Origin: Ziziphus jujuba
Taxonomy: Eukaryota; Streptophyta; Magnoliopsida; Rosales; Rhamnaceae
Length of the DNA: 64,000 nucleotides
Direction of reading: 5' to 3'
Assembly: GCF_031755915.1 (NCBI RefSeq)
Contig: NC_083387.1
Coordinates: 14,095,001 to 14,159,000 of the forward strand
Positions 1 to 53,173 of this stretch are shown piece after piece. Both the position numbers and the translations under genes were made by a program. Numbering within the stretch: position 1 is the first letter of the stretch; each line of letters starts with the position of its first letter. Under the pieces are notes generated by a model. That model ran no database searches, was not told where the DNA came from, and worked only from the letters and a program-made list of their open reading frames with translations.

Positions 1-1127
1 GATTCCGCCCGAGCCCGCTCCACCGAGAACCCGTTGGGGTGCTGACTCGACACGGATGAAGACTAGGCCAAGCACAAGAGCTCAAATTAAGAGATTTAAG
101 GGCAACATGGGAGTATTTATACAGAGGGTAATCAATCTCAACAGAGCTTTTCCATACTTGAAGATACAAAGCCTATTCGAAGCATCCAAGTGGTGGAAGC
201 TGATACGGACCCGAGTGACGGTTTTGGTACATTTTTGGAGTCCAGGAAGCATGAAATGGTTCCAATGCTTTATGGGTACAATACATATGCCTAAGAGGTC
301 ATGGAATCAAGTTAAAGTAGCCTCAAATGCAATCAAAAAGGGCTTGTACGGACAGCATCAACAATTTGGCCGAATTTGCTGTATTGCTTGCTGGCTTTAC
401 TGTATTTTACTGTATTAGCCTTTTCTTATTTTTCCAAGCATGGGAAACATGTGGGACTTCATATTCAGCTTATTTGGCATCCTAAAAAAACATCTAGAAG
501 CTGATTTGAAGCTCAAAGAGGTCAAAAATTGGTCAAAGTCAACTTGATAAAAAAGGCTAGAATTTTTAGTTTCCTAATTTGTTTTTACTTTTTATTTTAG
601 GAAACTGCCATTACTTTTTGACATTTATTTATTTATTTTCTAGAAAAATAACTTTAGGAAGGTTTTTATTTATTCTTTCCATTGTAAATTAATTAATTCC
701 TAATTTAATATAAAGGAATTAATTAATCAAACTTAGATTAGGAAAGGAAGTATAGTTTCAGCCAGGTTTCTTTATGTGTGGTGGCTGGTTTTTCTTTATT
801 TTTAGGGTTTTATTTCGTGGCTTTGTAGCCTATTTAAAGGCTTTTTTTTCAATATGAATAAAACTTTGATTTGATTAAGAAAATACTTGTGAGATTAATT
901 ATCTCTTTGTTCTTTGAGAACACCTAAAACACCATTAGAGAATTGGTTGTTTTAGCTTGACTTATCAATAGGTTTTCCATCCCCTATTGTGGCGTCTACA
1001 TTATACCAAGGTTTCTAACCACAGGTTGGTTAGGGGTTGAGGTCCATTCCATTAGAACTTGAACTTAATTAAAGATCCGGGCTAATATAATACGGGTTTA
1101 GGAGCAGGTCGTCCTAGGTTCGTATCA
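1..1127 (+). repeat. E1 5' LTR (first 6 bases outside the window)
   Basis: Repeated at 5191-6026. It ends CGTATCA, two bases before the primer site, as in the other family E LTRs. Full length would be 1133 bp. The first part (56-418) is an open frame matching the C-terminal end of the E1 ORF, because in this family the coding frame runs into the 3' LTR. Confidence 0.92.
831..862 (+). promoter_or_regulatory. LTR TATA-like box and polyadenylation-like signal
   Basis: TATTTAAAGG at 831-840 is followed by AATAAA at 857-862. The TATTTAAAGG motif recurs at the same LTR position in E2, E3 and E4, which supports a role in the U3/R region. Function is inferred from position and motif only. The matching part of the E1 3' LTR is deleted. 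Confidence 0.5.
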
Positions 1128-1129
1128 TT

Positions 1130-1141
1130 TGGTATCAGAGC
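1130..1141 (+). other. E1 primer-binding site (initiator Met tRNA)
   Basis: TGGTATCAGAGC complements the 3' end of plant initiator methionine tRNA and lies two bases after the LTR end. It is the expected start of minus-strand DNA synthesis. The same site occurs in E3 and E4, and with one changed base in E2 and E5. Confidence 0.9.
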
Positions 1142-2302: not shown

Positions 2303-5300
2303 ATGGCAGATTCTAGAATAAGAAGAGGAGATCCACCCTTGAGGATCAATGAGGAAGAGTCCGTAGCATTCCATGGCAATGTCCGAGCTACCGGGAGCGG
2401 AGACCAAGTGGACATGAGAGCTGTTTTGGAGTCAATACAGCGTGTTAGTGCTCAAGTTGAGCATGTGAATCAAATAATGGGAAGGCTAGAAGCCTCACAA
2501 GAAATGCCGAACACAAGAAATAGGCAAGAATTCCATGGAGGACGAGGCCGAGGACGAGGAGGTCGCGAGAGACCGAGAGAGGAATTTGATGAGGAGCCAT
2601 TCGATGGAGAATTTGAGGAAGGTATGGATGAAACTTTTGCTGTCCAAGATAGAGCTGTCCGTGGAAGATATAGGAGGGAAGATATAGATGATGATTTGGG
2701 AAATATCAAGATCAACATTCCACCATTCATGGGAAAAAGTGATCCCGAGGCGTATTTGGAGTGGGAAGAAAAGATGGAGATGATATTCGACTGCCATAAT
2801 TATTCGGAGGGTAAAAAGGTGAAGTTGGCAGCAATGGAGTTTGGCCATTATGCACTCCAATGGTGGACGAATGAGCAAAACACCCGAAGGAGAGTTGGTG
2901 ATGACTTGATCACAACATGGCGACAAATGAAAGGAGCCATGAGAAAGCGATTTGTGCCATCACATTACCATAGGTTGCTGCATCAAAGGCTTCAATCTTT
3001 GTCTCAAGGAAGTAGGTCCGTGGAGAATTATTACAAAGAGATGGAGATGCTCATGATGAGGCTGAATATGAATGAGGATAGGGAGGCAACAATGGCGAGA
3101 TTTCTTGGTGGTTTGAACCGTGACATTGCCAACCAGCTTGAATTGCAACAATACTTGGAGTTGAAGGAGATGTTGCATGTTGCCATTAAGCTTGAGCACC
3201 AATTTAAGAGGAGGGGTGTAAGCTCATGGTTTGGAGGTGTTTCCAACAGTGGAAGGTCCAATTCTAGTGGCTGGAGGAACAATCCCATCTATGAAAGCAA
3301 GCCAAAGCCGAAAGTCAAAGAAGAAAGTTCAAACTGGCCAAGGAAGGAGACTAGAATCAAATCTGTCCAAGCACCAAAGAATGAGGTAAAATTAGATCCT
3401 AAACCTTCTAGAACTCATGATGTTGTGTGTTTTAAGTGCCAGGGAGGAGGACACATTGATAGCCAATGCCCGAATAGAAGAATCATGGTGTTAAAGGGCA
3501 ATGACGAGCTAGAATCGGAAAGTGAAGAAAGTGAGGATAAAGCCAAGCAAAAGGAGGAGGACTTGGAGGATGAACCCAAAACCTTGCAAGCATCCAATGC
3601 TGAATTAAACTTGCTTTCTAGGAGAGTACTTGCTGCATACAAAGATGAGGATGAAATTCAAAGAGAGAACATCTTCCACACCCAATGTGAAATTCAAGGT
3701 AAGATTTGTAGTATGATTATTGATAGTGGAAGTTGTACAAATGTAATTAGTAACATTGTAGTTGATAAATTAGGCTTAATAACTATTAAACATCCAGAAC
3801 CTTATAGATTACAATGGCTTAATGATGGTGGTGAAATAAAAGTGAATAAACAAACCAAAGTAAAATTTAATATAGGTAGATATGAGGATGTAGTTTTATG
3901 TGATATTGTACCCATGATTGCTGGACATATACTATTAGGTAGGCCATGGCAATTTGATAAAGATGCTACTCATTTTGGTCGAGAAAATAGTATTGTTTTC
4001 AGGTTTAAAGGGAAGAAGGTCAAGCTGGAACCATTATCGCTTAAAGAGGTTTACAAAGACCAATTACAAATGCAACAAAGGAGAGAAGCCGAAAAGCTCA
4101 AGGAAAAAGCAAGTATGGCACCAACGGCTTCACCATCCTTTCAAGAAGGTAAGAATGCGGTTGCTGATCAAGGTAAGGTTTCTAAGACTCATATTGAGTG
4201 GAAATATCAAGGAAAAACCGAAAGAGAGGGGAAAGAAAGTGGCAAACCCAAGAGCTTGGAGAAGGAAGGGAAATCCGAAGGTTTGCGCCAGTCTGAGAGA
4301 GAAAAAGAAAAAGAAAGAAAAGAAAGGTCAAGTAGCAACTTTTATTTGAGTTTAGGGGATATTAATAAGGTTATTGAGTGTAAGAAACCTTTGCTGGTCA
4401 TGATTTATAAAGAAAATTATTTTAAAGATCAAACTAACATTGAAGAACTTGAATTGCCAAGTTCAATGATTTCTCTTTTGAAGGAATTTGGAGATGTCTT
4501 CCCAAATGAAATTCCAAGTGGACTACCATCCAATCAAGAGGGAAAAGGTGAGCTTGTTGTCCAAGGTAAGTCTTCTAATACTCAGGTTGTGTGGAAAAAT
4601 TTTAATAAAACCAAGAGTGAAAAATTTGGTGCAAAAGCCGAGAGTGAGGAAGGTGAGATGGCCGTGAGTGAGAAAGGAAAAGGAAGACAAGAAATGAAGA
4701 ATATAAATTTTTATCTTAGCTTTGGTGATGTTAATAAAGTAATTATGAATAAGAAATCATTGCTGACCATGAATTTTAAGGATGCTTATTTAAAGATGTC
4801 TTTATTGAATAGAACTTTATCTGCATTGTTGAGAGCTTTACTTAGTGGCAATTTGAAAATTTGGGAAATATTGTTTGCTAACTTTAAAAAATGTAATTTT
4901 TACCATAATGAGCATGTATTTCTAGATTTTACTGTAATAGTGTTTGACCCAGGAGAATTGGTTTTGTTGCACTTACGAAAGGAAAGGTTTCCTAATCAAA
5001 GAAAGTCAAAGCTCATGCCGCCTATGGATGGACCTTTTCAAGTTTTGGAGCCGAATAACAAGAATGCCTACAAGCTTGATTTACCGGGTGAGAATAACAT
5101 GAGTGATGCATTTAATGTTGCTGATTTAACTCCTTTTGCTGCAGCTGATGATCTTGATTTGAGGACAAATCCTTTTCAAGAGGAGGGGAATGATGTGATT
5201 CCGCCCGAGCCCGCTCCACCGAGAACCCGTTGGGGTGCTGACTCGACACGGATGAAGACTAGGCCAAGCACAAGAGCTCAAATTAAGAGATTTAAGGGCA

Positions 5301-5614
5301 ACCTGGGAGTATTTATACAGAGGGTAATCAATCTCAACAGAGCTTTTCCATACTTGAAGATACAAAGCCTATTCGAAGCATCCAAGTGGTGGAAGCTGAT
5401 ACGGACCCGAGTGACGGTTTTGGTACATTTTTGGAGTCCAGGAAGCATGAAATGGTTCCAATGCTTTATGGGTTCAATACATATGCCTAAGAGGTCATGG
5501 AATCAAGTTAAAGAAGCCTCAAATGCAATCAAAAAGGGCTTGTACGGACAGCATCAACAATTTGGCCGAATTTGCTGTATTGCTTGCTGGCTTTACTGTA
5601 TTTTACTGTATTAG
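2303..5614 (+). CDS. E1 gag-protease polyprotein with integrase tail, no reverse transcriptase
   Basis: 1103 codons without a stop. Order: charged and Arg/Gly-rich N-terminus (about 70-130), gag core (about 135-310), CCHC zinc knuckle with C376, C379, H384 and C389, and aspartic protease with DSG at 474-476. The protease-RT linker follows at about 617-743 and ends in [12 protein letters not shown] (731-742), where gypsy reverse transcriptase would begin. Instead the linker type repeats at about 744-833, then comes a piece of integrase core C-terminus (834-857, [12 protein letters not shown]), then the integrase C-terminal region (about 882-946). From about residue 963 the frame lies in the 3' LTR. 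The last 70 or so residues appear out of frame relative to E4 and E6, so the hydrophobic end is probably not a real domain. The start codon is the first ATG after the leader and is shared with E3. It could still supply gag and protease; catalysis of copying must come from elsewhere. Confidence 0.85.
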
Positions 5615-6026: not shown

Positions 6027-7807
6027 TCTTCTTTGTTGCATTTGTAATTGGTGTTTGTAAACCTCTTTAGGAGATAATGGTTCCAGCTTGACCTTCTTCC
6101 CTTTAAACCTAAAAACAATACTATTTTCTCGACCAAATGAATAGCATCTTTATCAAATTGCCATGGCCTACCTAATAGTATATGTCCCGCAATCATGGGT
6201 ACAATATCACATAAAACTACATCCTCATATCTATCTATACTAAATTTTTCTTTGGCTTGTTTGTTTACTTTCATCTCACCACTATTATTACGCCATTGTA
6301 ATCTATATGGTTTAGGATGTTTTATTGTTTTTAAGCCCAATTTATCAACTACAAGGTTACTTATTATATTAGTACAACTCCCACTATCTATAATCATGCT
6401 ACAAATTTTACCTTGTATTTCACAACGAGTGTGGAAGATGTTCTTTCGTTGAATTTATTCTTCATCCTTGTAAACAGCAAGTACCCTCCTTGAGACCAAA
6501 TTTAGCTCAACATTTGATGTGTTTAATGGTTCAGCCTCATCATCAAGTCCTTCATCTACTTGTTCGATTTCAGCCTCACTAGCCTCACTCTCGGATTCCA
6601 CCTCTCCATTACCCCTAATTACCATTATCCTTCTATTCGGGCATCGGCTGGCTATATGTCCTCTTCCTTGGCACTTGAAACAAATAATTTCTCTTGACTT
6701 TTGAAGTTTAAGTTTAGATTTTACCTCACCTTTAATGGCTTGGGCAGATTCGATTTTAAATTCTCTTCTTGGCCGATTGGTAGCTTCTTCACCAAGTTTC
6801 GGCTTCAGCTTGCTTTCATAAGTGGAATTGTTTTTCCAGCCACTTGAACTTGTCCTTCCACTGCTAGAAACTCCTCTAAACCATGTGCTAACACCCCTCC
6901 TCTTGAATTGGTTCTCAAGCTTAATTGCTACATGCAACATCTCCTCCAACTCCAAGTATTGTTGTAATTCAAGCTGGTTGGCAATGTCACGGTTCAAACC
7001 ACCCAGAAATCTTGCCATTGTTGCCTCCCTATCCTCATTCATATTCAGCCTCATCATTAACGTCTCCATCTCTTTGTAATAATCCTCCATGGACCTACTT
7101 CCTTGAGACAAAGATTGAAGCCTTTGATGCAGCAACCTATGGTAATGGGATGGCACAAATCGTTTCCTCATGGCTCCTTTCATTTGACGCCATGTCGAGA
7201 TTAAATCATCACCAACTCTCCTTCAGGTATTTTGCTCATTGGTCCACCATTGGAGTGCATAATGTCCAAACTCCATTGCTGCCAACTTCACCTTCTTACC
7301 TTCCAAATAGTTGTGACAGTCAAAAATCATCTCCATTTTTTCTTCCCACTTCAAATAAGCTTCGGGATCACTTTTACCCATAAAAGGTGAGATGTTAACC
7401 TTGATGTTTCCCAAATCATCATCTGTATCTTCCCTCCTATATCTTCCATGGCTAGCTCTATCTTGAACAGCAAAAGTTTCATCCTTACCTTCTTCAAAGT
7501 CTCCATCGAATGCCTCCTCATCAAATTCCTCTCTCGGTCTCTTGCGACCTCCTTGTCCTTGGCCTTGTCCTCCATGGAATTCTCGCCTATTTCTTGTATT
7601 CGGCATTCTTTGTGAGGCTTCTAGTCTTCTCACTCTTTGATTCACATGCTCAACTTGAGCACTAACCCGCTGTATTAACTCCAATACAGCTCTCGTGTCC
7701 ACTTGGTCTCCACTCCCGGTAGCTCGGGCATCGCCATGGAATGCTACGGACTCCTCCTCATTGATCCTCAAGGATGGCTCTCCTCTCCTCTTTCTTGATT
7801 CTGTCAT
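6027..7807 (-). pseudogene. E2 gag-protease, broken by two stops and a frameshift
   Basis: Same protein type as the E1 ORF through the protease. The start ATG is at 7805-7807. Gag runs to a TGA at 7223-7225 replacing an Arg codon of E1, continues in the same frame with a CCHC knuckle ([14 protein letters not shown]), and meets a TAA at 6455-6457 replacing a Gln codon. Protease DSG follows in frame. Near 6135 one T of the coding strand is missing compared with E1 and E3, which shifts the frame. Both stops can arise by a single C-to-T change. The sequence ends at the E1 junction, about where the E1 protein has its QLQMQQRR motif. Confidence 0.88.
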
Positions 7808-8956
7808 GTTAGTATAATAATGCAATAGAAATAAAATAGGACCTTACAATTTCACTCCCTTACGTGTTTCACTCAAATGAGGACTCGACACTTGTGTTTG
7901 CACACTTGTTTTGGCTTTTACCCTCTTTTAAGCTCACACACTCTTGCCTTTTTCCACTCAATGAGTTACCTCAAAGTTCTAATTAAAACACCCACAAAAT
8001 AGAAATTAGATCACTAGTATGTTTTAATTAAACTTATCAACAAAACAATAAGCAAAAATAAACAAATACCGAACGGAATGAAAATACCTATTTTCGGTTT
8101 TTCTAGACAAAATAAAGCAAATTAATGAGAAAACTTTGGAATTTTGAAGAACTGAACCAGATGGTAATAGATTATGAGTTCAAGAATAAAATTCTAGAAA
8201 AAGAAATTCAAATACGAACAAGAATCAAAGAGAACAAAAATATAGAAAAGTGTTGGTTGTTGTTCTTGTAATTCAAGTTTTGTATCAAATCCTTTAACTA
8301 ATTTCAATCCAAATAATTGAAGCACCCAAAATCCAAATATCCAGCAGCAAAAATAATTTCCAAGCAACTCAAATATTGAATAAATAATCAAAAAACCAGC
8401 AGCTCCAACAAATTTCCAGCAAACAAATCAAACTCCAACAAACCGAAATATTTTTCTTTTCTTTTTATTTTATTTTATTCGGCTTTACCTCTTCTTTTTT
8501 ATTTTTTTTTTCACTCACAGAACATAAAAAGCTGCAGTAGCAAGAATAATTACCAAAATTGCAATTCCAACTCCAAAACAAACACCAACCCCGTGACCTC
8601 CAAATAAACACAAATGTGCCCTTTTTTTTTTTTTTTTTAAATGTTGCCGCAAACTCTTTTTTTTTTTTTGAATATATGAATGCAAATATTTAAGACTAAC
8701 ACAGCCAAAACAAAACAACAAAAACCAAAATCAACAAGAACAATGATGAAAAATAACCAACAAACTAGGAAACAAAAATACGATAAAACTAGGAAACCTA
8801 ATTCAACTAGGAATGAAATTTTTTTTTTTTGTTTTTTTTTTCAATGATGCAGAACATGTATGATGATATAAGCAACCTTAACCTAATGCTAAAATTGTAA
8901 ATTAACGTAAAAACAAATAAAGCAAAGAAGGATACATCAAACCTGAACAAAATTTA
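7808..8956 (-). other. E2 leader
   Basis: Minus-strand counterpart of the E1 leader, with T-runs on the + strand at about 8619-8638, 8656-8669 and 8819-8830. No coding sequence is supported. Confidence 0.7.
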
Positions 8957-8968
8957 GCTCTGATATCA
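8957..8968 (-). other. E2 primer-binding site
   Basis: GCTCTGATATCA on the + strand. It differs by one base from the standard Met-tRNA site and lies two bases from the LTR. Confidence 0.8.
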
Positions 8969-8970
8969 AA

Positions 8971-9992
8971 TGATACGAACCTAGGACGACCTGCTCCAAA
9001 ACCCGTATTATATTAGCCCGGATCTTAATTAAGTTCAAGTTCTAATGGAATTGACTTCAACCCCTAACCAACCTGTGGTTAGAAACTTTGGTATAATGTA
9101 GATGCCACAATAGGGGATGGAAAACCTATTGATATGTCAAGCTAAAACAATCAAATCTCTAATGGTGTTTTAGGTGTTCTCAAAGAACAAAGAGATAATT
9201 ACTCTCAGAAGTATTTTCTCAATCAAATCAAAGTTATGTTCTTATTGAAAAATAAGCCTTTAAATAGGCTTTGAAAGAAACAAAGTAAACCCTAAAAAAA
9301 AACCCTAGGAAAAACCGGCCACATACATAAAGAAACCTAGTTGGCCGAAACTATACTTCCTTTCCTAATCTAAGTTTGATTAATTAATTCCTTTATATTA
9401 AATTAGGAATTAATTAATTTACAATGGAAAGAATAAAATAAAACCTTCCTAAAGTTATTTTTCCAGAAAATAAATAAATAAAAACCCAAAAAGAAAGAAA
9501 GTCAACCGCAAATTAGGTAACGAGTTGACTTTGACATCTAGGTTGAATTATGTCTTCAACCGAGCTAACTTATATCTGCCTGATGTCCGAGCTAACTTAT
9601 GGTCTATCTGAGCTAACTAATGTTTGTCTAAGCTAACTGATGCCTTTCCGAGCTAACTTATGTCTGTTTGAGCTAACTGATGTCTGTCCGAGCTAAGTTA
9701 CGTCCGATGTCCGAAGTCCGAAGTCAAATGTCCGAGACATGGGTGTCCGATATAAAATGTCCAATGTATGGGTGTCCGATATATCAGCCTCCACCACTTG
9801 GATATTAAAACAGGTCTTTTATCTTTAGGTATGGACAAGCCCTTTTGAGAATTAATTACTTTCTGGATAAAGGCAGCAAGGTTGTCCTTAAACCTCTTAG
9901 CTTGAGCCCTAGTGATCGGTCCAGTCTTCATCAGTATCGGATCAGTACCCCAGTGAGTTGTTGGTGGTGCGAGCTCGGGCGGGTTTGCATCA
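8971..9992 (-). repeat. E2 5' LTR
   Basis: 1022 bp, bounded by TGATACGA (8971) and GCATCA (9992) on the + strand. The TATTTAAAGG box of the family is present on the minus strand near 9256-9270. Its U3 part differs from the other family E LTRs by a tandem array at 9555-9715. Confidence 0.87.
9555..9715 (-). repeat. Tandem array of about 20-bp units inside the E2 LTR
   Basis: About seven imperfect units built on GAGCTAACT(T/G)ATGTCTGTC, followed by shorter GTCCGAAGTCC-like units. No such array is seen at this place in the LTRs of E1, E3, E4, E5 or E6. Confidence 0.8.
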
Positions 9993-13581: not shown

Positions 13582-13606
13582 TTTTTGAAAATTAAAATGC
13601 ACATAT
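13253..13606 (-). repeat. Tandem duplications of the C1 gag start
   Basis: A 136-bp unit covering the start codon and first 40 or so codons occurs twice, with ATGs at 13581 and 13445. Part of its inner end is repeated again with a 62-bp offset (13254 and 13316). Neither offset is a multiple of three, so both shift the frame. Confidence 0.85.
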
Positions 13607-13764
13607 ATTAACACGTAATCAACACAACAAACATACAAATATGTGGATCCCTTAAACTACTTATTATTAATATTTATTGTAACAATAATTTAATTTCCAT
13701 TACAAATACTTACGTTGGGCAAGACATTTGTAATAAATTAAACTTTGAACATGGTATGTTTTAA

Positions 13765-26895: not shown

Positions 26896-28034
26896 TGATA
26901 CGAACCTAGGACGACCTGCTCCTAAACCCGTATTATATTAGCCCGGATCTTAATTAAGTTCAAGTTCTAATGGAATGGACCTCAACCCCTAACCAACCTG
27001 TGGTTAGAAACCTTGGTATAATGTAGACGCCACAATAGGGGATGGAAAACCTATTGATAAGTCAAGCTAAAACAACCAATTCTCTAATGGTGTTTTAGGT
27101 GTTCTCAAAGAACAAAGAGATAATTAATCTCACAAGTATTTTTTTAATCAAATCCAAGTTTCAAAGTTTTTTTATTAATGAAAAATAAGCCTTTAAATAG
27201 GCTTTGAAAGAAACAAAATAAACCCTAAAAACCCTAGGAAAAACCGGCCGCTCAATGAAGAATTCTACCTTGGCCGAAACTTTCCTTTTCCTAATCTAAT
27301 TTGGATTAATTAATTCCTTTATTTTGAACTAGGAATTAATTAATTTGCAAAGAAAATAATAAAATAATAACTTTCCTAATCTTATTTGTCCAGAAAATAA
27401 ATAAATAGAAACTAAAAATAATGGTAGTTTCCTAAAACAAAAAGTAGAATCAAATTAGGAAACTATAATACTAGCTTTTTGACTAAGTTGATTTTGACCA
27501 ATCTTTGACCAAATTGAGCTCCAAATCAGCTTCTAGATGCTTTGTAGGATGCCAAATAAACTGAATATGAAGGCCCACACGTTGCCCATGCTTGGAAAAA
27601 TAAGAAAAGGCTAATACAGTAAAATACAGTAAAGCCAGCAAGCAATACAGCAAATTCGGCCAAATTGTTGAAGCTGTCCGTACAAGCCCTTTTTGGATGC
27701 ATTTGAGGCTGCTTTAACTTGATTCCATGACCTATTAGGCATATGTATTGAACCCATAAAGCATTGGAACCATTTCATGCTTCTCGGACTCCAAAAATGT
27801 ACCAAAACCGTCACCCGGGTCCGTATCGGCTTCCACCACTTGGATGCTTCGAATAGGCTTTGTATCTTCAAGTATGGGCAAGCTCTGTTGAGATTGATTA
27901 CCCTCTGTATAAATACTCCCAGGTTGCCCTTAAATCTCTTAATTTGAGCTCTTGTGATTGGCCTAGTCTTCATCCGTGTCGAGTCAGCACCCCAGCGGGT
28001 TATCGGTTGAGCGGCCTCGGGCGGAATCACATCA
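26896..28034 (-). repeat. E3 3' LTR
   Basis: 1139 bp, TGATACGA to ACATCA on the + strand. Near-identical to 32094-33232. It contains the C-terminal end of the E3 frame (27611-28034). Confidence 0.95.
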
Positions 28035-30922
28035 TTCCCCTCCTCTTGAAAAGGATTTGTCCTCAAATCAAGATCATCACCTGCAGAAAAAGGAGTTAAA
28101 TCAGCAACATTAAATGCAGCACTCATGTTATACTCACCCGGTAAATCAAGCTTGTAGGCATTCTTGTTATTCGGCTCCAAAACTTGAAAAAGTCCATCCA
28201 TAGGCGGCATGAGCTTTGACTTTCTTTGTTTAGGAAACCTTTCCTTTCGTAAGTGCAACCAAACCAATTCTCCTGGGTCAAACACTATTACAACAAAATC
28301 TAGAAATACATGCTCGTTATGGTAAAAATTACACTTTTTAAAGTTAGCAAACAATATTTCCCAAATTTTCAAATTGCCACTAAGTAAAGCTCTCAACAAT
28401 GCAGATAAAGTTCTATGCAATAAAGACATCTTTAAATAAGTATCTTTAAAATTCATGGTCAGCAATGGTTTCTTATTCATAATTACTTTATTAACATTAC
28501 CAAAGCTAAGATAAAAATTTATATTTTTCCTTTCTTGTCTTCCTTTTCCTTTCTCACTCAATGCCATCTCACCTCCCTCACTCTCGACTTTTGCACCAAA
28601 TTTTTCACTCTTGGTTTTATTAAAATTTTTGCTCTCAACCTGAGTATTAGAAGACTTACCTTGGATAGCAAGCTCACCTTTTCCCTCTTGATTGGATGGT
28701 AGTCCACTTGGAATTTCATTTAGGAAGACATCTCCAAATTCCTTCAAAAGAGAAATCATTGAACTTGGCAATTCAAGTTCTTCAAAGTTAGTTTGATCAT
28801 TAAAATAATTTTCTTTATAAATCATGACCAGCAAAGGTTTCTTACACTCAATAACCTTATTAATATCTCCTAAACTCAAATAAAAGTTGCTACTTAACCT
28901 TTCTTTTCTTTCTTTTTCTTTTTTTCCCTTGGATTGGCGCAAACCTTCGGATTTCCCTTCCTTCTCCAAGCTCTCGGGTTTGCCACTTTCTTTTCCCTCT
29001 CTTTCGGTTTTTCCTTGATCTTTCCACTCAATATGAGTCTTAAAACCCTTATCTTGATTAGCAACCTCATTCTTACCTTCTTGAAAAAATGGTGAAGCCG
29101 TTGGTGCCATACTTGCTTTTTCCTTGAGCTTTTCGGCTTCTCTCCTTTGTTGCATTTGTAATTGGTCTTTGTAAACCTCTTTAGGAGATAATGGTTCCAG
29201 CTTGACCTTCTTTCCTTTAAACCTGAAAACTATACTATTTTCTCGACCAAAATGAGTAGCATCTTTATCAAATTGCCATGGTCTACCTAATAGTATTTGT
29301 CCAGCAATCATGGGTACAATATCACATAAAACTACATCCTCATATCTACCTATATTAAATTTTACTTTGGCTTGTTTGTTTACTTTCATCTCACCACTAT
29401 CATTAAGCCATTGTAATCTATATGGTTCTGGATGTTTAATTGTTTTCAAGCCTAATTTATCAACTACAAGATTACTTATCACATTAGTACAACTCCCACT
29501 ATCTATAATCATGCTATAAATTTTACCTTGTATTTCGCAGCGAGTGTGGAAGATGTTTTCTCTTTGTATCTGCTCTTCATCTTTGTAGACAGCAAGTACT
29601 CTCCTTGAAACCAAGCTCAACTCGGCATTAGATGTATCTACAGGTTCGGTTTCATCTTCATTACAACCCTCCTCTTGCTCGGTTTCAGCTCCACTTTCTT
29701 CACTTGCGGATTCCAGCTCACCATCACCCTTTAATACCATGATTCTTCTATTTGGGCATTGGCTGGATATGTGTCCTCTTCCTTGGCACTTAAAACAAAT
29801 TATTTCTCTAGATTTTTGAGGTTTAGGATCAGATTTTATCTCACCTCTAAGTGCTTGGACAGATTCGGTCTTGACCTCCCTTCTTGGCCGGTTGGTAGAT
29901 TCTTCTCCTAATTTCGGCCTCAACTTGTTTTCATAAGTGGAATTGTTTTTCCAGCCACTTGAACTTGTCCTTCCACTGCTAGAAACTCCTCCAAACCGTG
30001 TACTAACACCCCTCCTCTTGAATTGGTTCTCAACTTTAATGGCTACATGCAACATCTCCTCCAATTCCAAGTATTGTTGTAATTCAAGTTGGTTGGCAAT
30101 GTCACGGTTTAACCCTCCAAGAAATCTTGCCATTGTTGCCTCTCTATCCTCCCTCATGTGTAACCTCATCATTAACATCTCCATCTCTTTGTAATAATCC
30201 TCCACGGACCTACTTCCTTGAGACAAAGATTGAAGCCTTTGATGCAGCAACCTTTGGTAATGGGATGGCACAAACCGCTTCCTCATGACTCCTTTCATTT
30301 GTCGCCATGTTGTAATTAAGTCTTCACCAACCCTCCTTCGGGTGCTTTGCTCATTTATCCATCATTGGAGTGCATAATGGCCAAACTCCATTGCTGCCAT
30401 CTTCACCTTCTTACCTTCCGAATAGTTGTGGCAGTCAAAAATCATCTCCATTTTCTCTTCCCACTCCAAATAAGCTTCAGGATCACTTTTACCCATAAAA
30501 GGTGGGATATTAACCTTGATATTTTCCAAATCTTCATCTGTATCCTCCCTCCTCTATCTCCCACGGCCAGCTCTATCTTGGACAGCAAAGGTTTCGTCCA
30601 TACCTTCCTCAAAGTCACCGTCCAATGGCTCCTCATCAAATTCCTCTCTCGGCCTCTCGCGACCTCCTCGTCCTCGGCCTCGTCCTCCATGGAATTCTTG
30701 CCTATTTCTTGTATTCGGCCTTCCTTGTGAGGCTTCTAATCTTCCCACTCTTTGATTTACATGCTCAAATTGAGCACTCATCCGCTGTATTGATTCCAAA
30801 ATAGTTCTCAAGTCCACTTGATCTCCACTTCCTGTAGCTCGGTCATCGCCATGAAATGCTACGGACTCTTCCTCATTGATCCTCAAGTGTGGATCCTCTC
30901 TTCTTATTCTAGAATCTGCCAT
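27611..30922 (-). pseudogene. E3 gag-protease polyprotein with integrase tail; two in-frame stops
   Basis: Same architecture as the E1 ORF: start MADSRIRR at 30922, gag, CCHC knuckle ([14 protein letters not shown]), protease DSG, first linker ending in [12 protein letters not shown], second linker, integrase piece [12 protein letters not shown] and integrase C-terminal region, then the LTR-encoded end. Only two single-base defects break it: TAG at 30554-30556 where E1 has a Tyr codon, and TGA at 30362-30364 where E1 has Trp. Downstream of the second stop 895 codons remain open. No RT or RNase H. The young insertion age plus two stops suggests it was copied as RNA with help from proteins of other copies, or that the stops are later. 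Confidence 0.88.
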
Positions 30923-32079
30923 GTTAGTAAAATACTACAAAAATAAAATAAATCCTCACAATATTCACTCCCTCACGTGTTTCACTCAAACAAGGTCTCA
31001 ACACTCGTGTTTGCACACTAGTTTCGGCTTTTACCCTCTTTTAAGCTCACACACTCTTGCCTTTTTCCACTCAATGAATTATCTCAAAGTTCTAATTAAA
31101 ACACCCACAAAAACAGCAATTAGATCACTAGTATATTTTAATTAAACTTATCAACAAAACAGTAGCAAACAGTAGGCAATACCGAAAGAATCCAACAAAT
31201 CCTAATTTTACGGCTTTCTAGACAAGAAAACGCAAAATAATGGGAAAACGTTGGAATTTTTGAAAACTGCACCAGATGGTAGTAGATTATGAGTTCAAGA
31301 ATAAAATTCCAGGAAAAGAAATTCAAATACGATCAAGAATCAAAGAGAACAAAAATATAGAAAAGTGTTGGTTGTTGTTCTTGTAATTCAAGTTTTGTAT
31401 CAATTCCTTTAACTAATTTTAATCCAAAAAAATTTAATCACCCAAAATCCAAATATCCAGCAGCAAGAATAATTTCCCAGCAACTCAAATATTGAATAAA
31501 TAATCAAAAACCAGCAGCTCCAACAAATTTCCAGCAAACAAATCAAACTCCAACAAACTGAAATATTTTTTTTTTTTATCCGACTTTACCTCTTCTTTCT
31601 CTTTTTTTTTTTTTTTTTTCACTCACAGAACATAAACAACTGCAGTAGCAAGAATAATGACCAAATTTGCAATTCCAACTCCAAAACAAACACCAAACCC
31701 GTGACCTCCAAATAAACAAAATGTGCAGTTTTTTTTTTTTTTTTAAATGTTGCCGCAAACTTCTTTTTTTTTTTTCTTGTTTTCTTTTTTTTTTTTTTTT
31801 GAATATATGAATGCAAATATTTAAGACTAAAACAGCAAAGAAAAATCAACAAAAACCAAATTAACAAGAACAATGATAAAAGACAACCAACAAACTAGGA
31901 AACAAAAATACGATAAAACTAGGAAATCCTAACTCAACTAGGAATGAATTTTTTTTTTTTTTTTTTTAAGATGCTGAACGTGTATAGGATGGATGCAACC
32001 TTAACCTAATGCTAAAATTGCAGAATAACACAAAAACAAATAAAGCAAATAAAGATAGATCAAACCTGAACAAAATTTA
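30923..32079 (-). other. E3 leader
   Basis: Minus-strand counterpart of the E1 leader with long T-runs on the + strand (about 31,600-31,619, 31,730-31,744, 31,764-31,800 and 31,950-31,967). No coding sequence supported. Confidence 0.7.
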
Positions 32080-32091
32080 GCTCTGATACCA
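32080..32091 (-). other. E3 primer-binding site
   Basis: GCTCTGATACCA on the + strand, exact Met-tRNA site, two bases from the LTR. Confidence 0.9.
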
Positions 32092-32093
32092 AA

Positions 32094-33232
32094 TGATACG
32101 AACCTAGGACGACCTGCTCCTAAACCCGTATTATATTAGCCCGGATCTTAATTAAGTTCAAGTTCTAATGGAATGGACCTCAACCCCTAACCAACCTATG
32201 GTTAGAAACCTTGGTATAATGTAGACGCCACAATAGGGGATGGAAAACCTATTGATAAGTCAAGCTAAAACAACCAATTCTCTAATGGTGTTTTAGGTGT
32301 TCTCAAAGAACAAAGAGATAATTAATCTCACAAGTATTTTTTTAATCAAATCCAAGTTTCAAAGTTTTTTTATTAATGAAAAATAAGCCTTTAAATAGGC
32401 TTTGAAAGAAACAAAATAAACCCTAAAAACCCTAGGAAAAACCGGCCACTCAATGAAGAATTCTACCTTGGCCGAAACTTTCCTTTTCCTAATCTAATTT
32501 GGATTAATTAATTCCTTTATTTTGAACTAGGAATTAATTAATTTGCAAAGAAAATAATAAAATAATAACTTTCCTAATCTTATTTGTCCAGAAAATAAAT
32601 AAATAGAAACTAAAAATAATGGTAGTTTCCTAAAACAAAAAGTAGAATCAAATTAGGAAACTATAATACTAGCTTTTTGACTAAGTTGATTTTGACCAAT
32701 CTTTGACCAAATTGAGCTCCAAATCAGCTTCTAGATGCTTTGTAGGATGCCAAATAAACTGAATATGAAGGCCCACACGTTGCCCATGCTTGGAAAAATA
32801 AGAAAAGGCTAATACAGTAAAATACAGTAAAGCCAGCAAGCAATACAGCAAATTCGGCCAAATTGTTGAAGCTGTCCGTACAAGCCCTTTTTGGATGCAT
32901 TTGAGGCTGCTTTAACTTGATTCCATGACCTATTAGGCATATGTATTGAACCCATAAAGCATTGGAACCATTTCATGCTTCTCGGACTCCAAAAATGTAC
33001 CAAAACCGTCACCCGGGTCCGTATCGGCTTCCACCACTTGGATGCTTCGAATAGGCTTTGTATCTTCAAGTATGGGCAAGCTCTGTTGAGATTGATTACC
33101 CTCTGTATAAATACTCCCAGGTTGCCCTTAAATCTCTTAATTTGAGCTCTTGTGATTGGCCTAGTCTTCATCCGTGTCGAGTCAGCACCCCAGCGGGTTA
33201 TCGGTTGAGCGGCCTCGGGCGGAATCACATCA
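32094..33232 (-). repeat. E3 5' LTR
   Basis: 1139 bp, followed by the target duplication GGTTG. Confidence 0.95.
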
Positions 33233-34910: not shown

Positions 34911-34952
<42 letters not shown>

Positions 34953-41112: not shown

Positions 41113-42117
41113 ACGTAATGAAAAATAAAATAAAATAAAAAAAAGTACTTTCTTTTCTACTCATATGGTACATGTGATCAATAGTTTTTGTGTTTCAATT
41201 TTTTATTCAGATAGTGTGACATGAACTGTTGCCAAAAAAAAAAAAATTAGTGAAATAAACTATATTACCAATAAAAAAAAAAAATCACAAATATCCTTTT
41301 ATTTATAATCGCTAGCATTTGTAATTGTTGGATTTTAATTACTTTAATGAGTCTTTATAATTTTTTTTCTATTTAATTTAGTTATTATTATTATTCTTAT
41401 AAATCCAGAAGGGAATTTTAACATTCATCTTTAAACCCAAAAATTTGATGATATTATTAATCATCATTATCCAATGGTCCAAAGGGACTACCTTTAAAAA
41501 CTTATAGTGATAGCTAAAAAGAAAACTTTTAAATTTCATGGCAAACAACGAATTTATATAATATCTGTGTGCCGCATAAATAGAGGTCCTCACATTACTC
41601 CTACCTAATAATTAGCCATTGATATCAAACGGATGTTAATCTAACATATTCCTTAAGAAAGATGCCTTTGAGTTTGGTATTTTGCTTTCTTCTTTCCTCA
41701 AATCTCGCTTTCTCTAGTTTAATCGTCACGTATCAGTTAGATATTTTGTGTGGACTAGCTGTAGTCATATGATCACTTACTGGGCTTGTTTGTGCCAGTA
41801 ATGAGACTGACTTATTTACTAACTTTTGTATTAGGGCCTTTGAACACACATTCTCTATAGTAATTCAATTGACTTATTGGACTAAAGGACCTATTCTTTC
41901 TAAAAATCTAATTGACTTATTCCCTACTTTTACTATTATATTTATTATATATTATTATTATTATTATTTATTATTTATTTTGTGTATATATATATATATA
42001 TGTAGATAAATTGGAGAATAAGTGACTAGGGAATTAGTACAATATATACGATAGAGAAACTAGGCCTTGAGACATTTACGGGTGCTTGTTTGGTGAAAAC
42101 CTTAGAAAAAAAGGTTA
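41113..42117. other. AT-rich DNA, no gene seen
   Basis: Contains (TTA)n at about 41,951-41,969 and (TA)n at about 41,984-42,001. No recognisable element. Confidence 0.45.
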
Positions 42118-43930
42118 GAGTCCGTGGAGGATTATTACAAGGAGATGGAGATGCTCATGATGAGATTGAGGATGAATGAAGATAGAGAAGCAACCATGGC
42201 ACAGTTTCTAGGTGGATTGAATCATCAGATAGCTAACCAATTGGAATTGCAACAATATGTGGAATTGGAAGAGACGTTGCATATGGCTATCAAACTTGAG
42301 AATCAATTCAAAAGGAAGGGCTCAAATGCATGGCTTGGAGGAGTTTCAAACAGTGGAAGATCAATTCCAAGTGCTTGGAGAAGCAATACTACCTTTGAAG
42401 CAAGACAAAAGCTAAAACTTGGAGAAAAAAGAACCACATGGCCAAAAAGGGAGTCCAAAACCGAATCTTTCCAAGCACACAAAAGTGAAGGTAAATTTGA
42501 TCCTGAACATTTTAGACCTCATGAAATTCTATGTTTTAAGTACCAGGGACGAGGACACATTGCTAGCCAATGCCCGAATAGGAGAATTATAATGCGGAAA
42601 GGTAATGGCGAACTAGAATCCAAAAGTGAAGCAAGTGATGCTGAAATCGAAATTGATGGTAGAGAAGTAGGATCTAAAGAGCATGATGAATCCAAAACAT
42701 TCAAAGCATCGAGGGCTGATTTGAGTTTGGTAGCAAGAAGGGTTCTAACCGTGTACAAAGATGAGGACCAAATTCAAAGAGAGAACATCTTCCACACTCG
42801 ATGTGAAATTCAAGGTAACATTTGTAGTATGATAGTTGATAGTGGAAGTTGTGCAAATGTAATTAGTAATTTGGTAGTTGATAAATTGGGGTTAACAACC
42901 ATTAAACATCCAAAACCATATAGATTACAATGGCTAAATGATAGTGGTGTGATGAAAGTAAATAAACAAGCCAAAGTAAAATTCAGCATTGATAAATATG
43001 TGGATGTTGTATTGTGTAATGTTGTTCCTATGCATGCCGGTCATATTTTGTTGCGTGGGCCATGGCAATTTGATAAGGATTCTATACATTATGGGAGAGA
43101 GAATTCCATTGTATTTAAATTTAAAGGGAAAAAGATTAAGCTGGAGCCATTAACTCCAAAAGAAGTATCTAGAGATCAACTTCAAATGCAATAGAGGAGG
43201 GAGGCCGAAAACCTTAAAGAAAAGGCTAGTATGGCACCCAAGGCTACAACAACTATTCAAGGGAACAAGGCCATGCAAGAACAACCAGCTAAGTGTCTTA
43301 ACTCAATGGTGAGGGGAAAAACAATGTCAAATCCGAGAGTGAGAAGAAACTTGAAAAAGTCGAGAGTGAAAGAAAACAAATAGAACCCATGAGTGCAAAA
43401 GAAAAAGAGAGGAAAGAAAAGAAAAATAAAATTTTTTATCTTAGCTTAGATGAGCGTAAAAAGGCATTTGTGAGTAATAAACCTATGCTGGTTATGAATT
43501 ATAAATATGCTTATTTAAAGATGTTTTTGTTGTATAGAACTTTATCTGCATTGTTGAGAGCTTTGCTTAATGAAAACTTGAAAATTTGGGAGAGATTATT
43601 TGTTAACTTAAAAAAGTGTGATTTCTGTAAAGATAAATTAGTGTTACCAAAGAGATTTGGTTTGGTTACACTTAACGAAGGAGAAGTTTCCTAAACAAAG
43701 GAAGTCCAAGCTTATGTTGCGTGGAGATATACTGGGTGAGTATAATGTTAGTGATACATTTAATGTTACTGACTTATCTCCTTTGCTGCAGGTGAGAATT
43801 TTGATTTGAGGGCAAATCTTTTTCAAGAGAAGGGGAATGATGAGAATTCTCTGGTGCCTGCACAACCGACAACCCGTTGGGGTGTTAACCCAATACGGAT
43901 GAAGATCGAGCCGATTACTAAAGCTTAAGC
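42118..43930 (+). pseudogene. E6 gag-protease remnant with single linker and integrase tail
   Basis: Gag C-terminal half ([15 protein letters not shown] onward), zinc knuckle with its second Cys changed to Tyr (CFKYQGRGHIASQC near 42,531), protease DSG (IVDSGSCANV). A TAG at 43192-43194 stands where E1 has a Gln codon. The linker NKIFYLSLDERKKAF near 43,425 passes directly into [19 protein letters not shown], the same join seen in E1, E3 and E4. The first linker copy and [12 protein letters not shown] of those elements are absent. Frameshifts follow, with part of the integrase C-terminal region deleted near 43,710. Confidence 0.85.
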
Positions 43931-44950
43931 CAAGAGATTCAAGGACCACCTGGCTGCTTTTATACAGGGAGTAATTAATATTCAAAAGGGCTTGTCAATA
44001 CCCGAAGATACAAAGCTTGTTTTAAGTATCCAAGTGGTGGAAGCCGTTACAGACCCGGGTAGCTGTTTTAGTGCAAATATGGACTCCGAGAAGCAACGAA
44101 TGGATATCACCAAGAGGCCATGGAATCATGTTAAGGCAGAATTAAAAGCATCTAAAACTATCCTGTACGACGATATCTCAATTTGGTCGAAAATGTATTG
44201 TTTAGCCGCTGGCTTTGACTTTTCTTCTTGTTCAAGCAAGTTTGACTTATTCCAATCAAGGGGAAACATGTGGGAATCATTATTAATCATATTTGGCATG
44301 TTACATGGCATATGAAACTGATTTGGAGCTCAAATAAGCTGAAAATTGGTCAAAGATACTTTAGTAGTCAAACTAGTCAACTAGTTTTCTAATTTGATTT
44401 TTGATTTTTTGTTTTAGGAAATTAGTCTTATATTTGGTTTCTATTTATTTATTTTCTAGACAAATCAACTAAGGAAAGTTATTATTTTATTATTTTAATT
44501 GTAAATTAATTAAATCCTAATTCAAAATAAAGGAATTAATTAATCCAAATTAGTTTAGGAAAGTAGGTGAATCTTGGCCAACATGTTTCTTTTTCTCTTT
44601 GGTGGCCGATTTTAACCTAAATTTTTAGGGTTTATTACTTTGTGACTCTAGCCTACTTAAGGACGTATTTTTTAGGAAGAACACAACCTTCAATATTATT
44701 TACAAAAATTAATTGTGAGATAGAATTCTCTTTGTCCTATTTGAACACCTAAAACACCATTAGAAAGTGAATGTTTTAGTTTTGACTTATCAATAGGACT
44801 TCCATAACCTATTATGGCATCTTCATTATACCAAGATTTCTAATCACAGGTTGGTTAAGGATTAAGATTTTCCCATAAGAACTTAAACTTAATTGAGATC
44901 TGGGCAAATATAATATGGGTTTAGGCACGAGTCGACCTAGGTTCGTATCA
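43838..44950 (+). repeat. E6 3' LTR
   Basis: 1113 bp from TGATGAGAATTC, after the purine tract AGAGAAGGGGAA (43826-43837), to CGTATCA. More diverged from the E1/E3/E4 LTRs than these are from one another; its start resembles the E5 LTR. Confidence 0.85.
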
Positions 44951-46888: not shown

Positions 46889-48026
46889 TGATGCGAATCC
46901 GCCCAAACCCATACAACCGACAACCCGCTAGGGTGCCGATCCGTTATAGATGAAGGTGGGACCGATCACTAGAGCCCTAGCTAAGAAGTTCAAGGACAAG
47001 CTTGCTGTATTTATACAAGGAATAAGTCATATTCAAGAGGGGTTGGCCATATCTAAAGAACCAAGGCCTGTTTTACTCATACAAGCAGTAGAAGCCAAAA
47101 CGGGCCCAGGGAGGCGGTTTTGGTACATTTTTGGAGTCCAGGAAGCATGAAATGGTTCCAATGCTTTATGTGTTCAATACATATGCCTAAGAGGTCATGG
47201 AATCAAGTTAAATCAGCCTCAAATGCAATCAAAAAGGGCTTGTACGGACAGCATCAACAATTTGGCTGAATTTGCTGTATTGCTTGCTGGCTTTACTGTA
47301 TTTTACTGTATTAGCCTTTTCTTATTTTTCCAAGCATGGGCAACGTGTGGGGCTTCATATTCAGCTTATTTGGCATCCTAAAAAGCATCTAGAAGCTGAT
47401 TTGAAGCTCAAAGAGGTCAAAGATTGATCAAAGTCAACTTGATCAAAAGGCTAGTATTTTTAATTTCCTAATTTGTTTTTACTTTTTGTTTTAGGAAACT
47501 ACCATTACTTTTTCGCTTTTATTTATTTATTTTCTGGACAAATAACTTTAGGAAGGTTTTTATTTTATTCTTTCCATTGTAAATTAATTAATTCCTAATT
47601 TAATATAAAGGAATTAATTAATCAAACTTAGATTAGGAAAGGAAGTATAGTTTTGGCCAACTAGGTTTCTTTATGTGTGGTGGCCGGTTTTCTTTATGTT
47701 CTAGGGTTTTATTTCGTGGCTTTTTAGCCTATTTAAAGGCTTAGTTATCAATAAGAATACAACTTTGATTTGATTAAAAAAAATACTTGTGAGATTAATT
47801 ATCTCTTTGTTCTTTGAGAACACCTAAAACACCATTAGAGAATTGGTTGTTTTAGCTTGACTTATCAATAGGTTTTCCATCCCCTATTGTGGCGTCTATA
47901 TTATACCAAGGTTTCTAACCACAGGTTGGTTAGGGGTTGAGGTCCATTCCATTAGAACTTGAACTTAATTGAGATCCGGGCTAATATAATATGGGTTTAG
48001 GAGCAGGTCGTCCTAGGTTCGTATCA
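46889..48026 (+). repeat. E4 5' LTR
   Basis: TGATGCGAATCC to CGTATCA. It has the family box TATTTAAAGG near 47,729. Confidence 0.93.
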
Positions 48027-48028
48027 TT

Positions 48029-48040
48029 TGGTATCAGAGC
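48029..48040 (+). other. E4 primer-binding site
   Basis: TGGTATCAGAGC two bases after the LTR. Confidence 0.9.
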
Positions 48041-49205
48041 TAAATTTTGTTCAGGTTTGATCTATCTTTATTTGCTTTATTTGTTTTTGTGTTATTCTGC
48101 AATTTTAGCATTAGGTTAAGGTTGCATCCATCGTATACACGTTCAGCATCTTAAAAAAAAAAAAAAAATTTCATTCCTAGTTGAATTAGGATTTCCTAGT
48201 TTTATCGTATTTTTGTTTCCTAGTTTGTTGGTTGTCTTTTAACATTGTTCTTGTTAATTTGGTTTTTGTTGATTTTTCTTTGCTGTTTTAGTCTTAAATA
48301 TTTGCATTCATATATTCAAAAAAAAAAGATAACAAGAAAAAAAAAAAAAGAAGTTTGCGGCAACATTTTAAAAAAAAAAAAAACTGCACATTTCGTTTAT
48401 TTGGAGGTCATGGGTTTGGTGTTTGTTTTGGATTTGGAATTGCAATTTTGGTACTTACTCTTGCTACTGCAGTTGTTTATGTCCTGTGAGTGAAAAAAAA
48501 AAAAAAAAGAAGAAGAAGAGGCAAAGCCGGATAAAAAAAAACAAAAGAAAAAAAAATATTTCGGCTTGTTGGAGTTTGATTTGTTTGCTGGGAATTTGTT
48601 GGAGCTGCTGGTTTTTTGTTTATTTATTCGATATTTGAATTGCTGGGAAATTATTTTTGCTGCTGGATATTTGGATTTTGGGTGCTTAAATTATTTGGAT
48701 TAAAATCAGTTAAAGGATTTGATACAAAACTTGAATTACAATGAACAACAACCAACAACTATTCTATATTTTTGTTCAATTTGATTCTTGTTCGTATTTG
48801 AATTTCTTTTCCTAAAATTTTATTCTTGAACTCATAATCTACTACCATCTGGTGCAGTTTTCAAAAATTCCAACGTTTTTCCATTATTTTATGTGTTTTC
48901 TTGTCTAGAAAGCCGAAAAATTAGGATTTGTTGGATTCTTTCCGTATTGCCTACCTTTTGCCTTCTGTTTTGTTGATAAGTTTAATTAAAACATATTAGT
49001 GATCTAATTGCTGTTTTGTGGGTTTTAATTTAGAACTTTGAGATAAATCATTGAGTGGAAAAAGGCAAGAGTGTGTGAGCTTAAAAGAGGGTAAAAGCCG
49101 AAACAAGTGTGCAAACACAAGTGTCGAGTCCTTATTTGAGTGAAACATGTAAGGGAGTGAAATTGGTAAGGTCCTATTTTATTTCTATTGCATTATTATA
49201 CTAAC
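48041..49205 (+). other. E4 leader
   Basis: Same leader as E1, with A-runs at about 48,152-48,167, 48,318-48,327, 48,338-48,350, 48,370-48,382 and 48,494-48,508. No gene supported. Confidence 0.7.
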
Positions 49206-52075: not shown

Positions 52076-53168
52076 GGTACCAATCCGTTACGGATGAAGG
52101 TGGGACCGATCACTAGAGCCCTAGCCAAGAAGTTCAAGGACAATCTTGCTGTATTTATACAAGGATAATTCATAGTCAAGAGGGGTTGGCCATATCTAAA
52201 GAACCAAGGCCTGTTTTACTCATACAAGCAGTAGAAGCCAAAACGAGCCCGGGTGGCGGTTTTGGTACATTTTTGGAGTTTGGGAAGCATGAAATGGTTC
52301 CAATGCTTTATGGGTTCAATACATATGCATAAGAGGTCATGGAATCAAGTTAAATCAGCCTCAAATGCAATCAAAAAGGGCTTGTACGGACAGCATCAAC
52401 AATTTGGCCGAATTTACTGTATTGCTTGCTAGCTTTACTGTATTTTACTGTATTAGCCTTTTCTTATTTTTCCAAGCATGGGCAACGTGTGGGACTTCAT
52501 ATTCAGCTTATTTGGCATCCTAAAAAGCATCTAGAAGCTGATTTGAAGCTCAAAGAGGTCAAAGATTGATCAAAGTCAACTTGATCAAAAGGCTAGCATT
52601 TTTAGTTTCCTAATTTGTTTTTACTTTTTGTTTTAGGAAAGTACCATTACTTTTTCGCTTTTATTTATTTATTTTCTGGACAAATAACTTTAGGAAGGTT
52701 TTTATTTTATTCTTTCCATTGTAAATTAATTAATTCCTAATTTAATATAAAGGAATTAATTAATCAAACTTAGATTAGGAAAGGAAGTATAGTTTCGGCC
52801 AACTAGGTTTCTTTATGTGTGGTGGCCGGTTTTCTTTATGTTCTAGGGTTTTATTTTGTGGCTTTGTAGCCTATTTAAAGGCTTAGTTATCAATAAGAAT
52901 ACAACTTTGATTTGATTAAAAAAAATACTTGTGAGATTAATTATCTCTTTGTTCTTTGAGAACACCTAAAACACCATTAGAGAATTGGTTGTTTTAGCTT
53001 GACTTATCAATAGGTTTTCCATCCCCTCTTGTGGCGTCTACATTATACCAAGGTTTCTAACCACAGGTTGGTTAGGGGTTAAGGTCCATTCCATTAGAAC
53101 TTGAACTTAATTGAGATCCGGGCTAATATAATATGGGTTTAGGAGCAGGTCATCCTAGGTTCGTATCA
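52033..53168 (+). repeat. E4 3' LTR
   Basis: 1136 bp, after purine tract AGAGGAGGGGAA (52021-52032), followed by CTAGA. Confidence 0.93.
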
Positions 53169-53173
53169 CTAGA

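What the first reader, a model, noticed from the sequence alone, without database searches (positions are those of the whole stretch)
2303..5614. Non-autonomous gypsy family with RT/RNase H replaced by a second linker copy
E1, E3 and E4 all read gag, CCHC, protease, linker ending at [12 protein letters not shown] ([12 protein letters not shown] in E3), a second linker copy, then a piece of integrase core and the integrase C-terminus. RT and RNase H are absent at the same join in separate insertions with different target duplications or flanks. The copied unit is therefore the deleted form itself, mobilised by enzymes from elsewhere. Gag-only elements (TR-GAG) are known in plants; keeping protease and integrase tail with a duplicated linker in place of RT seems distinctive. 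One source could be template switching during reverse transcription.
Basis: partly seen in the sequence, partly recalled or inferred. Interest (0 to 1): 0.8.

Follow-up and report, generated by a model that had tools for sequence, protein, structure and literature searches.

The report
Polymerase-less jumping gene with scrambled remnant
Three copies of a plant jumping gene have lost the copying enzyme in exactly the same rearranged way, so the broken form itself has kept spreading, presumably on enzymes borrowed from intact relatives; such dependents are known among plant centromeric elements, and the rearranged remnant is the unusual part.

Summary
Observation confirmed and sharpened. E1 (1-6026 +), E3 (26896-33232 -) and E4 (46889-53168 +) share identical sequence across the same internal joins; E3 and E4 have different 5-bp target duplications (CAACC, CTAGA). 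After gag, CCHC and protease comes linker 1, cut just before RT, then a diverged linker 2. An older relative, E5, has the linker-2/integrase/RT joins but one linker, so the scramble is older (about 11 Myr at 1.3e-8) and linker 1 was probably added later. gag-protease differs between copies (E1-E3 dS 0.4-0.7) while the joined block hardly does (0.04-0.06): the block sits on different gag lineages, one of them 96% identical in the NC region to an RT-bearing Ziziphus jujuba protein. LTR ends and an ORF reaching into the LTR fit the CRM (centromeric) clade. Non-autonomous CRMs lacking RT, RNase H and integrase are already described in hop. Best reading: a trans-mobilised non-autonomous CRM family built and reshuffled by template switching. 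New variant of a known kind; genome-wide copy number untested.

The parts
1..1127 (+). E1 5' LTR (the window starts inside it, 6 bases in)
1130..1141 (+). primer binding site TGGTATCAGAGC (that this fits initiator tRNA-Met is recalled)
2303..3660 (+). gag with capsid (Retrotrans_gag) and CCHC knuckle; end approximate
3661..4042 (+). aspartyl protease; limits approximate
4043..4524 (+). linker 1, ends at [12 protein letters not shown] just before where RT would begin
4520..4548 (+). join J1 (linker 1 to linker 2), identical in E1, E3, E4; ACCATCC occurs here and at the start of E1's linker 1
4525..4801 (+). linker 2, diverged second linker, truncated
4789..4836 (+). join J2 (linker 2 to integrase core); E5 has the same join with substitutions
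4802..4864 (+). integrase-core scrap (E1 aa 834-854)
4850..4878 (+). join J3 (integrase scrap to RT scrap); E5 has the same join with substitutions
4865..4936 (+). RT scrap (E1 aa 855-878), out of order
4934..4957 (+). join J4 (RT scrap to integrase C-terminus)
4937..5194 (+). integrase C-terminal SH3 domain; frame continues into the 3' LTR
5177..5190 (+). polypurine tract CAAGAGGAGGGGAA
5191..6026 (+). E1 3' LTR, lacking 297 bp of the 5' LTR
26896..33232 (-). E3: same joins; LTRs 2 differences in 1139; TSD CAACC; two in-frame stops in gag
46889..53168 (+). E4: same joins; LTRs about 97% identical; TSD CTAGA; gag frame broken
42116..44950 (+). E5: older relative; similarity starts within gag; J2 and J3 present but a single linker
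6027..9502 (-). E2: opposite-strand relative, ends at linker start where E1 abuts; does not reach the joins

Best explanation
A non-autonomous, gag-protease-bearing family of the CRM clade of Ty3/gypsy elements. Shown: RT, RNase H and the integrase core are reduced to scraps in all three complete copies of the window through the same joins, and E3 and E4 inserted separately. Inferred: RNA of the deleted form is packaged and reverse transcribed with RT and integrase supplied by an autonomous CRM relative with matching LTR ends and primer site. Inferred: the deleted core arose by several strand transfers between co-packaged RNAs, first linker-integrase-RT-integrase tail (older, shared with E5), later adding linker 1 from an element with an intact linker-to-RT border at a 7-base match (ACCATCC). 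Shown for these copies: the block now sits on different gag-protease lineages. Inferred: template switching put it there.
For: Identical joins in 3 of 3 complete copies; TSDs of E3 and E4; LTR pairs differ at 2 of 1139 (E3), about 3% (E4) and 11 of 832 compared sites (E1), so insertions spread over roughly 0.07-1.1 Myr, all already deleted. Scrambled order: for E1, E3, E4 and E5 the first scrap scores higher with integrase and the second with RT in 25 of 25 chosen relatives, mean scores above the maximum of 300 shuffles. Mosaicism: E1-E3 dS 0.42/0.69/0.41 in gag/NC/protease against 0.059/0.040 in linker 1/tail; site-pattern heterogeneity reached in 0 of 1000 permutations. E3's NC block is 95.7% identical to RT-bearing P0001 of Ziziphus jujuba, E1's 60.7%. 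Tail dN/dS 1.00-1.20 against 0.17-0.20 for gag-protease (pairs of E1, E3, E4; Fisher P 0.001, 0.002, 0.011). E3 carries two gag stops though its LTRs differ at 2 sites; two or more arising after insertion has probability 0.003, or 0.018-0.043 if 5-8 differences were the true rate; this favours Gag from another element. Similar published cases.
Against: No helper element was read in DNA; P0001 is a partial gene model with missing segments and could in principle join neighbouring elements. The genome could not be searched (10 of 10 genome-search runs unanswered), so copy number and helper LTRs are unknown. Rearrangement at the DNA level could also give the first joins. A short match at a join was seen for J1 only; parent DNA for J2-J4 was not available. 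Constraint on gag may come from autonomous lineages: where E1 and E4 share recent ancestry the ratio is higher (NC 0.54, protease 0.74), and against E5 the tail is 0.43-0.47, not 1. CRM membership rests on structure, not on a tree.
Confidence: 0.8

Rival explanations
1. The scrambled core was made by DNA-level rearrangement (nested insertion, deletion, illegitimate recombination) in one genomic copy that was later transcribed and spread; template switching only reshuffled gag afterwards.
For: PMC4079200 names nested insertion plus illegitimate recombination as an alternative for CRM recombinants (passage); nesting is seen here (E1 abutting E2, E4 inside another element).
Against: The scramble needs several joins within 1 kb with two jumps backwards along pol; no LTR sequence lies between them in the alignment.
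Confidence: 0.25
2. Independent deletions converged on the same structure because of hot-spots.
For: RT-less gag plus integrase-tail proteins occur in other plants: 10 of the 120 listed hits carry gag and SH3_Tf2-1 models without an RT or RNase H model (gene models may be spliced).
Against: Sequence across all four joins is identical in 3 of 3 copies, and J2 and J3 recur in E5.
Confidence: 0.02
3. The copies are duplicated in the genome or assembly rather than transposed.
For: Several copies within 64 kb.
Against: Different TSDs and flanks, different LTR divergence, both strands, mosaic identity.
Confidence: 0.02
4. E5 is not ancestral in structure: it once had two linkers and lost one by recombination between them, so J1 is as old as J2-J3.
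For: Deletion between direct repeats would leave a single linker; E5 has other deletions.
Against: E5's linker shares linker-2 indels and its truncation, so the exchange would have to fall near its start.
Confidence: 0.3
5. The segment after linker 2 is only decayed integrase, with no RT in it.
For: The 45-residue stretch 834-878 as a whole can be aligned along integrase in many relatives, best 46.8% (P0040).
Against: Split in two, the second half has mean scores of 62-67 with RT and 19-21 with integrase, RT higher in 25 of 25 relatives for each of four elements.
Confidence: 0.03

Closest known systems
noaCRM of hop, Humulus lupulus (PMC12371157; passages and section 19 read)
   Same: CRM elements lacking RT, RNase H and integrase (so, by implication, keeping gag, protease and CR chromodomain), TSDs, recent insertions, PBS shared with autonomous CRMs; 446 dominant copies
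RLG_Quinta with helper RLG_Cereba, einkorn wheat (PMC11302176; passages)
   Same: Non-autonomous CRM partner keeping gag; gag diverged while flanks are alike, attributed to template switching
   Different: Quinta has gag plus a domain of unknown function, no protease or integrase tail mentioned in the passages seen
RLG_Sabrina_SA and RLG_WHAM, wheat (PMC9744471; passages)
   Same: 'Semi-autonomous' gag-protease elements without RT and integrase
   Different: Not placed in the CRM clade and no scrambled pol scrap in the passages seen
TR-GAG-type and other non-autonomous CRC elements of Coffea (PMC5818461; passages)
   Same: CRM-lineage elements keeping gag
   Different: Described there as lacking the pol region; protease and integrase tail are kept here. 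The original TR-GAG paper was not held
Recombinant and nonautonomous CR elements of grasses (PMC4079200; passages)
   Same: Recombination between CRM subfamilies; members with RT and integrase absent or truncated
   Different: No shared scrambled core in the passages seen

Membership tests
CRM clade of plant chromoviruses | LTR ends TGATG ... T/CATCA (PMC3059260, 'most elements') | tested here: met
   E3 and E4 LTRs start TGATG (E4's 3' LTR TGATA) and end TATCA; source passage
CRM clade of plant chromoviruses | PBS complementary to tRNA-Met | tested here: inconclusive
   TGGTATCAGAGC follows the LTR in E1, E3, E4; the match to tRNA-Met is recalled, not computed
[quoted passage not shown]
   E1 frame runs about 420 nt into the 3' LTR and a relative's C-terminus aligns into it; no reference CR motif was aligned
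CRM clade of plant chromoviruses | RT/integrase phylogeny within CRM | not tested
   only scraps remain; no tree with named CRM references was built
CRM clade of plant chromoviruses | centromeric location | not testable with these tools
   window position unknown
noaCRM (hop type) | RT, RNase H and integrase absent, gag and protease present | tested here: met
   only scraps of RT and integrase core remain
noaCRM (hop type) | LTR and PBS shared with an autonomous CRM of the same genome | not tested
   genome search unanswered in 10 of 10 tries
TR-GAG | gag kept, pol region lacking (as described in PMC5818461) | tested here: not met
   protease and integrase C-terminus retained
Semi-autonomous gag donor | intact, constrained gag-protease frame | tested here: inconclusive
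   E1 frame intact, dN/dS 0.17-0.20 among E1, E3, E4, but E3 has two stops, E4 is broken, and constraint may come from autonomous donors

The most novel reading that the evidence does not exclude
The persistent unit is not an element but the defective block: a scrambled pol remnant that has survived for roughly ten million years by repeatedly switching onto new gag-protease and LTR segments of autonomous centromeric elements, so that a defect behaves like an allele moving through a recombining retroelement population.
Probability: 0.35. Interest if true: 0.6.

Novelty: new variant of a known kind. Interest (0 to 1): 0.42.

Why it matters
The joins are a barcode. With them one can count every copy of a defective retroelement in a genome, date it, and see which gag and LTR lineages it has been attached to. 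That turns the question of how non-autonomous elements persist beside their helpers into a countable one. It also shows that annotation resting on RT domains would miss or misplace such elements in TE-rich centromeres.

Tried and rejected
Viral contigs: no confirmed relative of P0001, no exact J1 match. Junction-focused protein search: 2 weak hits among 324 candidates. RT of this type elsewhere in the window: none at E 1e-3 beyond the scraps.

A test that was too weak: one search looked for integrase core ahead of RT in 221 fetched proteins at E 1e-4 and found none, but one search showed that E1 itself fails at that threshold. At E 0.01 E1 is found together with 2 of 221 (P0096, P0124); both also have RT in the normal place upstream and look like models running into a second element. 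At E 1 P0104 and P0105 are added by weak hits. So I do not claim that no relative shares the order. Whether the scrap is RT at all was then tested directly.

My own errors: the LTR boundaries took in flanking bases (E3 given as 5 of 1142; corrected to 2 of 1139) and E1's gapped LTR alignment was wrong (corrected to 11 of 743 plus 0 of 89).

Rejected: that the open tail frame shows selection; about 1.1 stops were expected and none seen, P 0.32. Rejected: a recent tandem duplication of the linker, since the two linkers of E1 are 68% alike while linker 1, and the stretch from linker 2 to the integrase tail, are each about 96-98% alike between copies. Not equated with the jujube CRJ family: its representative is 11,454 bp and jujube centromeric LTRs are about 1700 and 800 bp against 1139 here; no sequences were compared.

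Full report
What is there. The window holds several copies of one LTR retrotransposon family: E1 at 1-6026 (+), E2 at 6027-9502 (-, partial), E3 at 26896-33232 (-), E4 at 46889-53168 (+) and the older E5 at 42116-44950 (+, partial). E3's LTRs are 1139 nt and differ at 2 sites; E1's differ at 11 of 743 plus 0 of 89 compared sites; E4's are about 97% identical. At the plant rate of 1.3e-8 (as used in PMC9744471, passage) this is about 0.07, 0.5 and 1.1 million years. E3 lies between CAACC repeats and E4 between CTAGA repeats. E1's left end is outside the window.

The internal order. E1 has one frame of 1107 codons. Pfam finds gag and the SH3_Tf2-1 integrase tail above cut-off, CCHC and aspartyl protease below it, and no RT or RNase H. 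Linker 1 follows the protease up to [12 protein letters not shown], which in full-length relatives lies just before RT. A diverged second linker follows (188 of 276 bases alike). Residues 834-854 are integrase core, 855-878 are RT, and 879 onward are the integrase C-terminus. I tested this against the simpler view that all of it is integrase, because the 45 residues together can be aligned along integrase at up to 46.8%. Taken apart, the first scrap scores 58-66 on average with integrase and 23-24 with RT; the second 62-67 with RT and 19-21 with integrase. This holds in 25 of 25 chosen relatives (of 221 fetched) for each of E1, E3, E4 and E5, and the means exceed the best of 300 shuffles. So the order is integrase, RT, integrase.

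One origin. Stretches across all four joins are identical in E1, E3 and E4; the 29-mer across J1 occurs three times in the window, expected 0.00. E5 shares J2 and J3 with substitutions but has one linker, which carries the indels and truncation of linker 2. It is 80-82% identical to the others in protease, 78% from linker 2 to the integrase tail, and about 74% to E1 in the LTR. A 26-bp gap lies over J4, so J4 cannot be scored there. In the J2-J3 block E5 differs by K 0.28-0.29, about 11 million years at the same rate. The simplest order is scramble first, linker 1 later; loss of linker 1 in E5 is not excluded. ACCATCC occurs both at J1 and at the start of E1's linker 1, a possible foothold for the later strand transfer; in E3 and E4 that start now differs at its last bases.

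Mosaics. The same pair of elements has very different divergence along its length: E1 and E3 have dS 0.42 in gag, 0.69 in the NC part, 0.41 in protease, then 0.059 in linker 1 and 0.040 in the tail; E1 and E4 switch between gag (0.42) and NC (0.062). From the LTR end to the start of the untranslated region (E1 970-1360) the three are 97.9-99.2% alike; the rest of that region is 90-93% alike. Heterogeneity of site patterns was reached in 0 of 1000 permutations. P0001, a partial Ziziphus jujuba protein with RT and RNase H, is 95.7% identical to E3 in the NC block, 72% to E2, 61% to E1. So the defective block is joined to gag segments of different lineages, one of them also found with RT. P0001 lacks several segments, as gene models do, and might bridge two elements. 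The high identity suggests that the window comes from Ziziphus or a near relative; the source is not stated.

Selection. gag-protease shows dN/dS 0.17-0.20 among E1, E3 and E4, the tail 1.00-1.20 (Fisher P 0.001, 0.002, 0.011). Against E5 the tail is 0.43-0.47, which is not neutral over the longer span and may reflect time before or outside the defective lineage. Where E1 and E4 share recent ancestry, ratios are higher (NC 0.54, protease 0.74), so the constraint on gag cannot be assigned to the defective lineage. E3 has two stops in gag; with 2 LTR differences 0.08 nonsense changes were expected after insertion and two or more have probability 0.003; with 5 or 8 differences it would be 0.018 or 0.043. 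This favours, without proof, that E3 moved with Gag from another element.

How it works. RT, RNase H and the integrase core are missing, so enzymes must come in trans (established knowledge of LTR elements). LTR ends, primer site and polypurine tract are kept, which is what a helper needs. That the family moved in this state is shown by two TSDs, LTR pairs and shared joins. Which helper, and packaging itself, are inferred.

What is known. The LTR ends and the ORF reaching into the 3' LTR fit the CRM clade as described in PMC3059260 (passages). Hop has 446 dominant noaCRM copies lacking RT, RNase H and integrase (PMC12371157, section 19 read). Wheat has gag-bearing Quinta with exchanged gag (PMC11302176, passages) and gag-protease Sabrina_SA and WHAM (PMC9744471, passages). 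CRM recombinants and nonautonomous members are known in grasses (PMC4079200, passages), TR-GAG-like CRM derivatives in coffee (PMC5818461, passages), recombination between members of the Onsen family (PMC5668417, passages), and complex elements by template switching in Triticeae (PMC1950507, results section). The jujube centromere paper (PMC12596083; three sections and passages read) has no 'autonomous' or 'non-autonomous', and no paper of the library holds jujube, LTR retrotransposon and nonautonomous together. A listing for scrambled deletion derivatives (ten of 50 papers listed) showed no title on such a structure; most subscription journals are not in that library.

Verdict. The kind is known; the scrambled, linker-doubled core shared by several gag lineages is a new variant.

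Noticed in passing
5938-5940: E1's 3' LTR lacks 297 bp that its 5' LTR has; a short match lies at the join.
   Followed up: partly
6026-6050: E1's 3' end abuts the linker start of the opposite-strand relative E2, as if E1 had inserted into E2; the other half would lie left of the window.
   Followed up: no
34131-40370: Copia-type element (RVT_2, rve, copia gag in frames within 35480-39357) between repeats 94% identical; pieces 74-77% similar to it flank E4 at 46221-46891 and 53169-54212, so E4 probably inserted into a relative of it.
   Followed up: partly
11000-12783: Remains of another copia-type element on the minus strand (CCHC, Pol_BBD, SH3_retrovirus).
   Followed up: partly
13253-14039: Short tandem arrays with units of 62, 136 and 151 bp.
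   Followed up: no
56953-58386: Diverged (about 74%) LTR and 5' region of the same family on the minus strand.
   Followed up: no
P0020, P0082, P0094, P0113 (protein search hits): Proteins of Fagus, Rubroshorea and an unnamed source keep gag and integrase tail with RT lost at other joins; may be gene-model splicing or separate deletions.
   Followed up: partly
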